Below are positions 21,362 to 24,137 of a stretch of 64,000 nt of DNA, one piece after another. Origin of the DNA: Fibrobacter sp. UWH4 (GTDB lineage: Bacteria > Fibrobacterota > Fibrobacteria > Fibrobacterales > Fibrobacteraceae); assembly GCF_900142475.1 (NCBI RefSeq), contig NZ_FRAY01000001.1:248001-312000 (forward strand), read 5' to 3'. How positions within the stretch are numbered: the stretch's first letter is position 1; every line of letters starts with the position of its first letter. A program made the translations under genes and the position numbers. The notes under the pieces were generated by a model. The model was given only the letters and a program-made list of their open reading frames with translations, was not told the origin of the DNA and did not search any database.

Positions 21362-21492
21362 AATGTGCTTCCAGTCCATTCTGGTTTAGCGAAGGGATGC
21401 TGGAGCAAATCACGGGGTAGAATAGACCGGAAGCACGCTTGTTTTCTTCTAATTCCACTCGTCCCGCAGGGTAAAACCTGCGGGATTTTTTT
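21362..21492 (+). ncRNA. Candidate small structured RNA with own terminator
   Basis: No gene lies here. A TATATT/TATTAT box sits at about 21350-21357. Bases 21365-21382 pair with 21419-21436 as three perfect segments (GTGCTTCC/GGAAGCAC, GTC/GAC, ATTCT/AGAAT) separated by two single mismatches. A 36-nt apical region lies at 21383-21418. A strong rho-independent terminator follows at 21462-21492. The size and single-hairpin form resemble a small SRP-type RNA, but the conserved GGAAG-AGCA SRP motif is not in the right place, so the family is left open. Confidence 0.6.
21462..21492 (+). terminator. Rho-independent terminator of the candidate ncRNA
   Basis: A 9-bp stem TCCCGCAGG/CCTGCGGGA with a 6-nt loop and seven T residues. 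Confidence 0.85.
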
Positions 21493-21535
21493 GTGGATCC
21501 CGTCGCGATTTTCAATCGCTCCAGGATGACTAGCA
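21493..21535. repeat. GATCCCGTC...AGGATGAC intergenic repeat
   Basis: GGATCCCGTCGCGATTTTCA, then ATCGCTCCAGGATGAC: a palindromic element (GCGATT/AATCGC arms) of the family also seen at 54933-55022 and 47023-47045, and in altered form inside genes. Confidence 0.7.
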
Positions 21536-21544
21536 AAAAAAGAA

Positions 21545-21651
21545 CCCGGTGAGTATTATGACCGCACGAGCTGCAAATAAGTTGGTTCTTATACTTGGCT
21601 CGTGCTCTCGCCACCGCCCCAACTTTACGTTTGGGGCTTTGTGGCTCACGG
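21545..21651 (+). ncRNA. Structured repeat, copy C (plus strand)
   Basis: Possible closing stem CCGGTGAG/CTCACGG. Arm 1 is CACGAGC (21565-21571) with GCTCGTG (21598-21604) around a 26-nt loop containing TTCTTA. The linker is CTCTCGCCACC, arm 2 is GCCCCAAC/GTTTGGGGC (21616-21637), and the tail is TTTGTGGCTCAC. It shares order and sequence with copies A and B on the opposite strand. Function unknown; it may be a repeat, RNA element or remnant. Confidence 0.5.
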
Positions 21652-21670
21652 TCTCCCATCAGGATGACCA

Positions 21671-21702
21671 ACTAAAAAATCCCCGGTGCATTGCACCGAG
21701 GA
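21671..21702. terminator. Bidirectional terminator between the structured repeats
   Basis: ATCCCCGGTGCA/TGCACCGAGGAT stem flanked by A and T runs on both sides. On the minus strand it can end the fusA transcript together with copies A and B. Confidence 0.8.
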
Positions 21703-21739
21703 TTTTAAACTTCTAAGAAGTTTGGCTTAGCTTTTTTTT

Positions 21740-21905
21740 GTGAGCCTCAAGCGACTCGTATTGCGATAATATCGCATAAACCAGCGCCTCAACAATATAA
21801 ACAAGCAAGCTTGTTTCTGCTGTATTCGGCTTAGGCTTATTTAACGAGTCGTGGTGGCGAGAGAACTGGCTCCAGAGTAAGAACTCTGTTGAATTTAGCC
21901 GGTTC
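21740..21905 (-). ncRNA. Structured repeat, copy B (minus strand)
   Basis: Arm 1 is GAACCGGCT/AGCCAGTTC with a 25-nt loop that itself holds CAGAGT/ACTCTG. The linker is TCTCGCCACC. Arm 2, ACGACTCGT paired with ACGAGTCGC, encloses a roughly 90-nt extension. The tail is CTTGAGGCTCAC. It is also open as a reading frame ending near 21708, but has no convincing start. Confidence 0.5.
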
Positions 21906-21913
21906 GGTCGTCT

Positions 21914-22000
21914 GTGAACGACGAAGCCCCGGTTATTAAACCGGGGCGGTCGTGAGAGGTTTGACTGAAGAGTAAGAAACTACTTAAGTCTAGTCAAACC
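21914..22000 (-). ncRNA. Structured repeat, copy A, in the fusA 3' UTR
   Basis: Arm 1 is a perfect 9-bp stem GGTTTGACT/AGTCAAACC with a 25-nt loop containing TTCTTACTCT. The linker is CTCTCACGACC. Arm 2 is GCCCCGGTT/AACCGGGGC. The tail is TTCGTCGTTCAC. It begins 8 nt after the fusA stop codon on the same strand. Confidence 0.5.
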
Positions 22001-22007
22001 GGTCTGT

Positions 22008-24137
22008 TTAGGCTCTAGCCTTGGCCTTGTCGCCGTACTTCTTGATGAGTTCGTCCTGGATGTTCTTCGGAACCGGGAGGTACTTGCAGAATTCCATGGT
22101 GAATTCAGCCTTACCCTGGGTCATAGAACGCAGGTCAGTAGCGTAGCCGAACATTTCGGACAGCGGGACTTCGGCGGTGATGGTGGTCATGCCGAGTTCT
22201 TCGTTCGTACCGGTGATGGTACCACGACGCTGGGAAACGTTACCCACGACAGAACCCTGGAATTCGGTCGGAGTCTGGATTTCGACCTTCATGATCGGTT
22301 CGAGGATCTGAGCGCCAGCCTTTTCGAAAGCTTCGCGGAAGGCCATACGGGCTGCAACCTGGAACGCCATATCAGAGGAGTCAACCGGGTGGTATGCACC
22401 ATCCTGGACTTCCATTTCGATACCCACAACCGGGAAGCCGATCAAGGAACCAGCTTCCATGCAGCTCTGGAAACCCTTGTCGCAAGACGGGATGTATTCC
22501 TTCGGAATACGGCCACCCACGACGGAGTTCACGAAGTTGTAGACCTTTTCCTGGTCGCCTTCGACAGCCATCGGACGCATTTCGCCGACAACCTTAGCGT
22601 ACTGACCAGAACCACCGGTCTGCTTCTTGTGAGTGTAGTCGAACTTGGCCGGACGGGTAATGGTTTCGCGGTAAGCCACCTGCGGAGCACCGGTCGTCAC
22701 GTCGCACTTGTATTCGCGGCGCATACGTTCGATGTAAACGTCGAGGTGAAGTTCGCCCATACCCTTGATGATGGTCTGGCCGGATTCCTTGTCGACTTCC
22801 ACCTGGAACGTCGGGTCTTCCTTGGTGAAGCGGTTCAGAGCCTTGGACATGTTGTCCAGGTCGTCGCGGTTCTTGGCTTCGATCACGAGTTCGATCACCG
22901 GATTCGGCACGTGCATAGAAGTCATGTTGTAGTGGTTCTTGCCATCGGTAAAGGTAGTACCGGAAGCGCAGTCGATACCGAACAGGGCAACAATGTCGCC
23001 TGCACCGGCTTCGGTGATATCCACCATCTCGTCGGCGTGCATACGCACGAGACGGCCCACGGACACCTTCTTGCCGGTGGCCATGTTGGTGATCATGTCG
23101 CCCTTCTTGAGGGTACCCTGGTAAATACGGATGTAGGTGAGCTGGCCATAGCGGTCGTTCACGAGCTTGAACGCGTAGCAGACGAGCGGAGCGTTGTCTT
23201 CGGACTTCAGCACGACTTCGGCTTCGTTGTTGTCGAGGTCGAGAGCCTTGTTTTCAACTTCGGTCGGGTTCGGGAGGTAGTCGATAACGCCGTCGAGGAG
23301 CTTCTGGACACCAACGTTCTTGTGAGCGGAACCCATGAACACCGGGGTCACTTCGAGGCTGATGGTAGCCTTGCGGATGGTGGCCTTGATGAGGTTCTTG
23401 TCGATTTCGTCGACGCCATACTGGCCTTCCATAGCCTTTTCCATGATTTCGTCGCTGTAGTCTGCGCAGCAGTCGATCAGCTTTTCACGGTATTCGTTAG
23501 CCTGGTCAACGAGTTCGGCCGGGATTTCCTTTTCGATCATGTCGTCGCCGTTAGCGCCTTCGAAGTAGTAGGCCTTCATTTCGACGAGGTCGACCACGCC
23601 CTTCAGTTGGTCTTCGAGACCGATAGGAATCTGCATGACGCAGGGCTTGTGGTTGAGCTTTTCCTTGAGCATGACAGCCACGCGGAGCGGGTTTGCACCG
23701 GAGCGGTCGCACTTGTTCACGAACACGACGCGCGGCACATGGTAGCGCTTCATCTGGCGGTCAACGGTAATAGACTGGGACTGAACACCTTCCACGCCGG
23801 TGAGCACGAGGATAGCACCGTCGAGCACGCGGAGAGAACGTTCCACTTCGATCGTGAAGTCCACGTGCCCCGGGGTATCAATGATGTTGATGGTGTCGGC
23901 TTCGCCAGACTTGGTGTGGGTCCAGTTTGCAAACGTGGCAGCAGACTGAATCGTGATGCCGCGTTCGCGTTCAAGTTCCATGGAGTCCATCGTGGCACCG
24001 ACGCCGTCTTTACCACGAACTTCGTGGATAGCGTGGATACGCTTTGTGAAGTAGAGGATACGTTCGGTAAGGGTGGTCTTACCGGAGTCGATGTGGGCAG
24101 AAATACCAATATTTCTGTGCTTTTCAATGTTTTTCAT
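22008..24137 (-). CDS. fusA: Translation elongation factor G, spd/mitochondrial EFG1-like
   Basis: 709 aa. The five-domain translocase GTPase shows P-loop AHIDSGKTT, switch [19 protein letters not shown] and NKCD. The motifs [20 protein letters not shown] and [14 protein letters not shown] are those of the EFG1 type shared by spirochaetes, planctomycetes, some deltaproteobacteria and mitochondria, rather than the standard EF-G (which has GxxHxGAATMDWM). Domain IV has PQVAYRETI and [13 protein letters not shown]. It stands alone, outside any str operon. Assignment to the spd class is inference from motifs. Confidence 0.95.

What the first reader, a model, noticed from the sequence alone, without database searches (positions are those of the whole stretch)
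21545..22000. Three copies of a structured two-hairpin element next to fusA, in inverted orientation
Copies A (22000-21914, minus), B (21905-21740, minus) and C (21545-21651, plus) share one order: a stem of 7-9 bp with a 25-26 nt loop containing TTCTTA, then a linker (CTCTCACGACC, TCTCGCCACC, CTCTCGCCACC), then a second stem, then a tail (TTCGTCGTTCAC, TTGAGGCTCAC, TTTGTGGCTCAC). Stem sequences differ (GGTTTGACT, GAACCGGCT, CACGAGC) but pairing is kept, apart from one mismatch in B. That is covariation. Copy B carries a 90-nt extension in arm 2. A and B would be in the fusA 3' UTR before a bidirectional terminator. I know no family with this layout.
Basis: seen in the sequence. Interest (0 to 1): 0.75.

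Follow-up and report, generated by a model that had tools for sequence, protein, structure and literature searches.

The report
Mobile two-hairpin repeat after stop codons
The three copies next to fusA belong to a previously uncatalogued family of about 90-base two-hairpin repeats, present in almost every Fibrobacter genome examined, that settle directly after stop codons and come and go between species while keeping their shape although their stem letters change completely.

Summary
Copies A, B and C share one architecture. A covariance model built from 13 copies finds about 46 copies at E<=0.001 in this genome, copies in 79 of 80 genomes of the genus (Fibrobacter, by named contigs), a few in two sister genera, and none in the other genomes of the phylum. 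It is not in Rfam. In 153 distinct units the stems are 97% Watson-Crick although their sequences differ, H1 keeps a near-constant span, and two thirds keep an unvarying T.C/C.T internal loop. Just over half of array-first units start within 10 nt of a sense stop codon, mostly TAA, against 2 of 72 at the other end. The same gene ends in six related species are full, empty, truncated or hold another subtype. One unit sits in frame inside nuoN and is absent from eight other species. Best reading: a non-autonomous mobile repeat that behaves like REP, RPE or bcr repeats but has its own architecture and no resident Y1 transposase or reverse transcriptase. A conserved cis-acting RNA is less likely: occupancy is unstable and G-U pairs are not favoured over A-C. 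Copy B's extension is a 79-nt insertion in its H2 loop. The enzyme that moves the units is unknown.

The parts
21914..22004 (-). Unit A: GACCG + H1 (GTTTGACT/AGTCAAAC) + CTCTC + H2 (ACGAC..GTCGT foot) + TCAC; begins 3 nt after the fusA TAA
   Evidence: CM R1 91.4 bits; fold z -8.0
21740..21909 (-). Unit B, tandem to A (joint AGAC), class AACCGGC; H2 carries an insertion
   Evidence: CM R1 42 bits for the 5' part; full length; extension-free orthologue in G020
21762..21840 (-). 79-nt palindromic insertion in the H2 loop of unit B
   Evidence: absent from the G020 unit at the same site; no second copy in the genome
21560..21649 (+). Unit C: H1 CACGAGCT/GGCTCGTG, H2 foot GCCAC/GTGGC, upper GCCCC/GGGGC
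   Evidence: CM R1 95.5 bits; region absent from the G020 orthologue
21672..21710 (.). Apparent bidirectional terminator hairpin between unit C and units B/A
   Evidence: sequence; read by eye, not reported by the consensus scan
22008..24137 (-). fusA (elongation factor G), whose TAA stop precedes unit A
   Evidence: ORF; orthologues in nearly all genus genomes

Best explanation
The copies belong to a Fibrobacteraceae family of roughly 90-nt structured interspersed repeats that behave as non-autonomous mobile DNA. Shown: one unit is GACCG-H1-CTCTC-H2-TCAC(GG); it occurs in tens of copies per genome, singly or in head-to-tail arrays, mostly directly 3' of TAA stop codons in the sense orientation; sites turn over between close species; one copy has entered a reading frame. 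Inferred: the folded single strand, not its sequence, is what a trans-acting DNA strand-transfer or recombination enzyme recognises (REP / IS200-IS605 logic), inserting after TAA or GACCG-like target sequence; arrays then grow and shrink by recombination or slippage between direct repeats, leaving truncated stubs. Because units lie between stop codon and terminator, they are presumably transcribed as the start of the 3' UTR; any effect on mRNA decay would be secondary.
For: About 46 copies at E<=0.001 in the own genome; 79 of 80 genus genomes, 5 genomes of a sister genus, 1 of another, none elsewhere in the phylum. At twelve gene ends in five relatives only 18 of 60 are occupied by a full unit; the pta site is filled in all six species but with different subtypes. 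fusA site occupied in 10 of 27 species, otherwise stop followed directly by terminator. In-frame 33-codon insertion in nuoN, absent from 8 species. Insertion changes C-termini of prmC-like, YggS-like and enolase genes. 37 of 72 array-first units lie within 10 nt of a sense stop against 2 of 72 on the other side (p 9e-12); TAA in 31 of 37 against 309 of 664 (p 1e-5). Whole-hairpin swapping at orthologous units.
Against: No mobilising enzyme identified: Y1 transposase absent from G000 and 22 other of 31 genus genomes, no reverse transcriptase in G000, and the single unit found near a Y1 gene looks incidental. Target-site duplications are not uniform (EF-P site TAA/GTAAT; nuoN and enolase sites about 9 nt; others none). 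Turnover could partly reflect recombination between existing copies rather than transposition.
Confidence: 0.6

Rival explanations
1. A cis-acting 3'-UTR RNA element: the transcribed two-hairpin RNA binds a protein or blocks or directs nucleases to set mRNA stability, and selection keeps its shape and its place after stop codons.
For: Strict sense orientation and stop-codon adjacency, position before terminators, housekeeping host genes, constant H1 span of 38-43 nt in nearly all units, conserved loop TAAT/TAAC and unvarying T.C/C.T internal loop.
Against: Occupancy not conserved among close species; G-U pairs (6) no commoner than A-C (13) in about 1190 pair cells, unlike an RNA helix under strand-specific selection; truncated stubs common; a unit sits inside nuoN.
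Confidence: 0.2
2. No mobility: palindromes are regenerated and amplified in place by template switching, slippage and gene conversion, so compensatory changes are a mutational by-product.
For: Stems change as whole arms, almost no wobble intermediates; identical tandem copies (C11:38537/38628); stubs consistent with deletion between short repeats such as GCTCAC.
Against: The T.C/C.T mismatch is kept unrepaired in 101 of 149 units while both flanking pairs covary, which templated correction would erase; new sites such as nuoN need insertion.
Confidence: 0.12
3. Cassettes of a site-specific recombinase (integron-like folded attachment sites) exchanged as circles at GACCG.
For: Arrays ending in GACCG stubs; enolase and nuoN junctions show GACCG-like sequence on both sides.
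Against: No integron core sites (GTTRRRY/RYYYAAC) seen in the units; no recombinase searched for or linked; several clean sites lack the duplicate.
Confidence: 0.05

Closest known systems
REP / BIME repeats with RAYT (GTAG- and CGTC-tagged REPs, PMC3733652)
   Same: Short imperfect palindromes, many copies, tandem or paired, predominantly close to the 3' ends of ORFs, sometimes supplying the stop codon or inserted in frame; an unpaired tag beside the hairpin (here GTGAG / GAGAG 5' of each hairpin on the opposite strand).
   Different: Units are 90 nt with two non-identical hairpins in direct order; tag is neither GTAG nor CGTC; Y1 transposase absent in most genomes that carry units.
Rickettsia palindromic elements (RPE, as described in PMC3733652)
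   Same: Palindromic repeats, one lineage, in-frame insertions encoding about 20-30 residues, no dedicated transposase.
   Different: Unrelated tag and architecture; Fibrobacter units are mainly 3' UTR and form arrays.
Bacillus cereus bcr1-bcr18 repeats (PMC3446304)
   Same: Lineage-restricted, structured, interspersed, MITE-like, often within UTRs.
   Different: Different length and sequence; stop-codon docking is not described in the passages read.
IS200/IS605-derived two-end elements (own knowledge)
   Same: Left and right hairpins, target sequence kept at the left, no long duplication.
   Different: No Y1 enzyme in this genome; ends and guide pairing not demonstrated.

Membership tests
REP (GTAG or CGTC superfamily) | unpaired GTAG or CGTC tag at one end | tested here: not met
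   invariant single-stranded parts are GACCG, CTCTC and TCAC; opposite strand gives GTGAG and GAGAG
REP (GTAG or CGTC superfamily) | 20-40 bp palindrome, many copies, near ORF 3' ends | tested here: inconclusive
   copy number and 3'-end position met; unit is about 90 nt with two hairpins
REP (GTAG or CGTC superfamily) | associated RAYT (Y1) transposase | tested here: not met
   PF01797 absent from G000, present in 8 of 31 genus genomes
IS200/IS605-derived element | two subterminal hairpins, insertion 3' of a fixed short target | tested here: inconclusive
   two hairpins shown; TAA within 6 nt upstream in 44 of 65 and 50 of 72 array-first units, not invariant
IS200/IS605-derived element | guide-to-cleavage-site pairing and cleavage by TnpA | not testable with these tools
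   needs biochemistry and an identified enzyme
known structured RNA family | match to an Rfam 15 model | tested here: not met
   no match at gathering score; best permissive matches far below gathering
MITE of a cut-and-paste transposon | terminal inverted repeats and constant-length target duplication | tested here: inconclusive
   GACCG / CGGTC outer ends pair in most copies but duplications vary between sites
Rickettsia palindromic element (RPE) | in-frame insertion in ORFs | tested here: met
   33 codons in nuoN of G000, absent from 8 species; a shared behaviour, not descent: no sequence relation to RPE was tested

The most novel reading that the evidence does not exclude
A hairpin-defined mobile DNA of a new mechanistic class: recognised by the shape of two hairpins (including a conserved pyrimidine internal loop) rather than by sequence, directed to TAA stop codons, and moved by an enzyme that is neither a Y1/RAYT transposase nor a reverse transcriptase.
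Probability: 0.25. Interest if true: 0.75.

Novelty: new variant of a known kind. Interest (0 to 1): 0.52.

Why it matters
Almost every genome of a major rumen cellulose degrader's genus carries these units, often tens of them, in the 3' UTRs of core genes, yet no curated RNA family matches them and the literature searches here found no description. The contrast of fixed shape and free sequence, with a natural set of filled and empty orthologous sites, makes it a testable system for how structure-recognised repeats spread without a RAYT, and for what a large 3'-UTR hairpin does to an mRNA. Annotators would also gain: units can be mistaken for coding sequence or alter predicted C-termini.

Tried and rejected
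Rfam at gathering and permissive thresholds: nothing credible. Decayed coding sequence: rejected, pairing covaries across 153 distinct units. Intrinsic terminators: rejected, H2 has no U-tract and separate terminators follow. RAYT/Y1: absent from G000; of ten loci holding Y1 or RT genes only one has a unit nearby. Reverse-transcription origin: no RVT_1 in G000. Rolling-circle Y2: 0 of 31, but the control also gave nothing, so uninformative. Phage carriage: one exact pattern absent from viral contigs. B extension as a second repeat family: unique in this genome. One Clostridiales MAG contig with the exact pattern is probably misbinned. Literature for a Fibrobacter repeat of this kind: none found; the supplement on insertion sequences in the S85 genome paper was not readable here.

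Full report
What is in the window. The sequence at 21545-22000 holds three units of one design. Read 5' to 3' on its own strand each unit is GACCG, hairpin H1 (7-8 bp stem, 24-27 nt loop), CTCTC, hairpin H2 (5 bp foot, one bulged base, upper stem, loop, three unpaired bases, foot) and TCAC, usually followed by GG. Refined coordinates are A 22004-21914 (-), B 21909-21740 (-) and C 21560-21649 (+). Each folds much better than shuffled sequence. A full-sensitivity scan of the window with the covariance model finds these three and nothing else of note. fusA ends with TAA at 22010-22008 and unit A starts 3 nt later. A terminator-like inverted repeat at 21672-21710, read by eye, separates C from B and A.

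A large family. DNA search of the own genome gave 18 further partial matches, from the units and from a second, unrelated repeat. A covariance model from 13 copies listed 52 places at E<=1 and 46 at E<=0.001. Across the phylum (168 genomes) 79 of 80 genus genomes, 5 genomes of one sister genus and 1 of another have matches, and no others do. An exact pattern in named genomes falls in Fibrobacter or Fibrobacterales contigs except one probably misbinned Clostridiales MAG. Rfam has no such family.

Structure. On 79 distinct aligned sequences, 21 of 24 pairs show changes on both sides; 381 cells are double changes against 100 in shuffles; the covariation score is 0.522 against 0.140 shuffled and 0.109 for the best slid version. 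That alignment was fitted to the model, so it leans towards the structure; independent parsing of raw units by fixed anchors gives the same result. In 153 distinct units (149 parsed) with 60 different H1 arm pairs, 97% of cells in four H1 pairs and four H2 foot pairs are Watson-Crick. H1 spans 38-43 nt in nearly all units. In 101 of 149 units the second and third H1 positions are a T.C/C.T internal loop, while the pairs on both sides covary. The H2 loop is most often TAAT or TAAC. G-U (6) is no commoner than A-C (13), so the pattern gives no sign that the sense-strand RNA in particular is selected.

Placement. In 80 independent Fibrobacter contigs, 37 of 72 array-first units start within 10 nt of, or overlapping, the stop codon of a co-oriented long ORF; on the other side only 2 of 72 do (p 9e-12). 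The stop is TAA in 31 of 37, against 309 of 664 in long ORFs (p 1e-5). Of the 35 units not next to such a stop, 17 still have TAA within 6 nt, and in the enolase and prmC-like genes the TAA(G) before GACCG is not in the reading frame of a stop. This suggests that TAA sequence, not translation termination, is the target, though the prediction was not tested separately.

Turnover. Twelve gene ends with a unit in this genome were examined in five close species: 18 of 60 have a full unit; others are empty, truncated to a stub (GACCG plus the 5' arm) or carry another subtype. The pta site is filled in all six species with differing subtypes. The fusA site is filled in 10 of 27. Orthologous units can share H1 but have a different H2 (C3:147015). 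One unit lies in frame in nuoN, adding 33 codons; eight other species lack it. Host genes include elongation factor P, enolase, phosphate acetyltransferase, ribosomal protein S9 and fructose-bisphosphate aldolase.

Copy B's extension. At the same fusA site G020 has a close relative of unit B, 90 nt long, without the extension; B is 80 nt longer, and a 79-nt stretch (21762-21840) lies in the TTAATA loop of H2. It has no other copy in the genome.

Mechanism. The combination of clean insertions, preferred target sequence, tandem arrays, and shape conserved without sequence fits a non-autonomous element recognised as folded single-stranded DNA, as REP elements are by RAYT. REPs too sit predominantly close to ORF 3' ends, can supply stop codons and can be inserted in frame (PMC3733652). 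But the REP tag is absent, and Y1 transposases are missing from this genome and from most of the genus, and reverse transcriptases are missing from this genome. The enzyme is unknown. Target duplications are inconsistent between sites, so the strand-transfer chemistry is not established. The RNA rival is kept at 0.2 because of strict sense placement between stop codon and terminator. The in-place palindrome-repair rival is disfavoured by the unrepaired T.C/C.T loop and by insertions at new sites.

Limits. No RNA data were available; the gene calls used here are simple ORF heuristics; occupancy at the twelve sites was ascertained from this genome, which biases the own genome to 'full'; the 80 contigs were found with one common H2 subtype and so over-represent it; species relationships among the relatives were judged only by similarity; no supplementary files of papers could be read.

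Noticed in passing
window 21366-21440 (+): Hairpin-forming sequence GTGCTTCC..GGAAGCAC between mazG and the terminator at 21461-21486, with a TATATT -10-like box upstream; a counterpart lies downstream of fusA in most genus genomes seen. No credible Rfam match. Possibly a small RNA.
   Followed up: partly
window 21494-21531 and own-genome C3:351997, C2:436275, C2:360898, C3:85828: Second dispersed short repeat, GATCCCGTC..GTCGCTCCAGGATGAC, next to unit C.
   Followed up: no
own genome C3:152620 (L084, L198): Unit inserted in frame inside nuoN, adding 33 codons, absent from 8 other species.
   Followed up: yes
L216, L258, L262, L266: Units lie near a partial duplicate of a tRNA-Arg(ACG) 3' end in four different Fibrobacter contigs.
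   Followed up: no
own genome C1:597308-597473, C3:152307-152480, C3:407808; fusA site of G046 (L098): Some units carry a recurring extra module in the 5' side of H2 (..GACCGAGTGAAGCCGCGGACGCC..GGCGTCAACC); others (C16:11735, C3:330465) carry CACCTAAAGGTGGCCATG in the linker.
   Followed up: no
own genome C6:171080 (L039) and G005 (L147): In the enolase gene the C-terminal Lys/Cys-rich coding sequence forms the 5' arm and loop of H1, so host sequence appears to have become part of a unit.
   Followed up: partly
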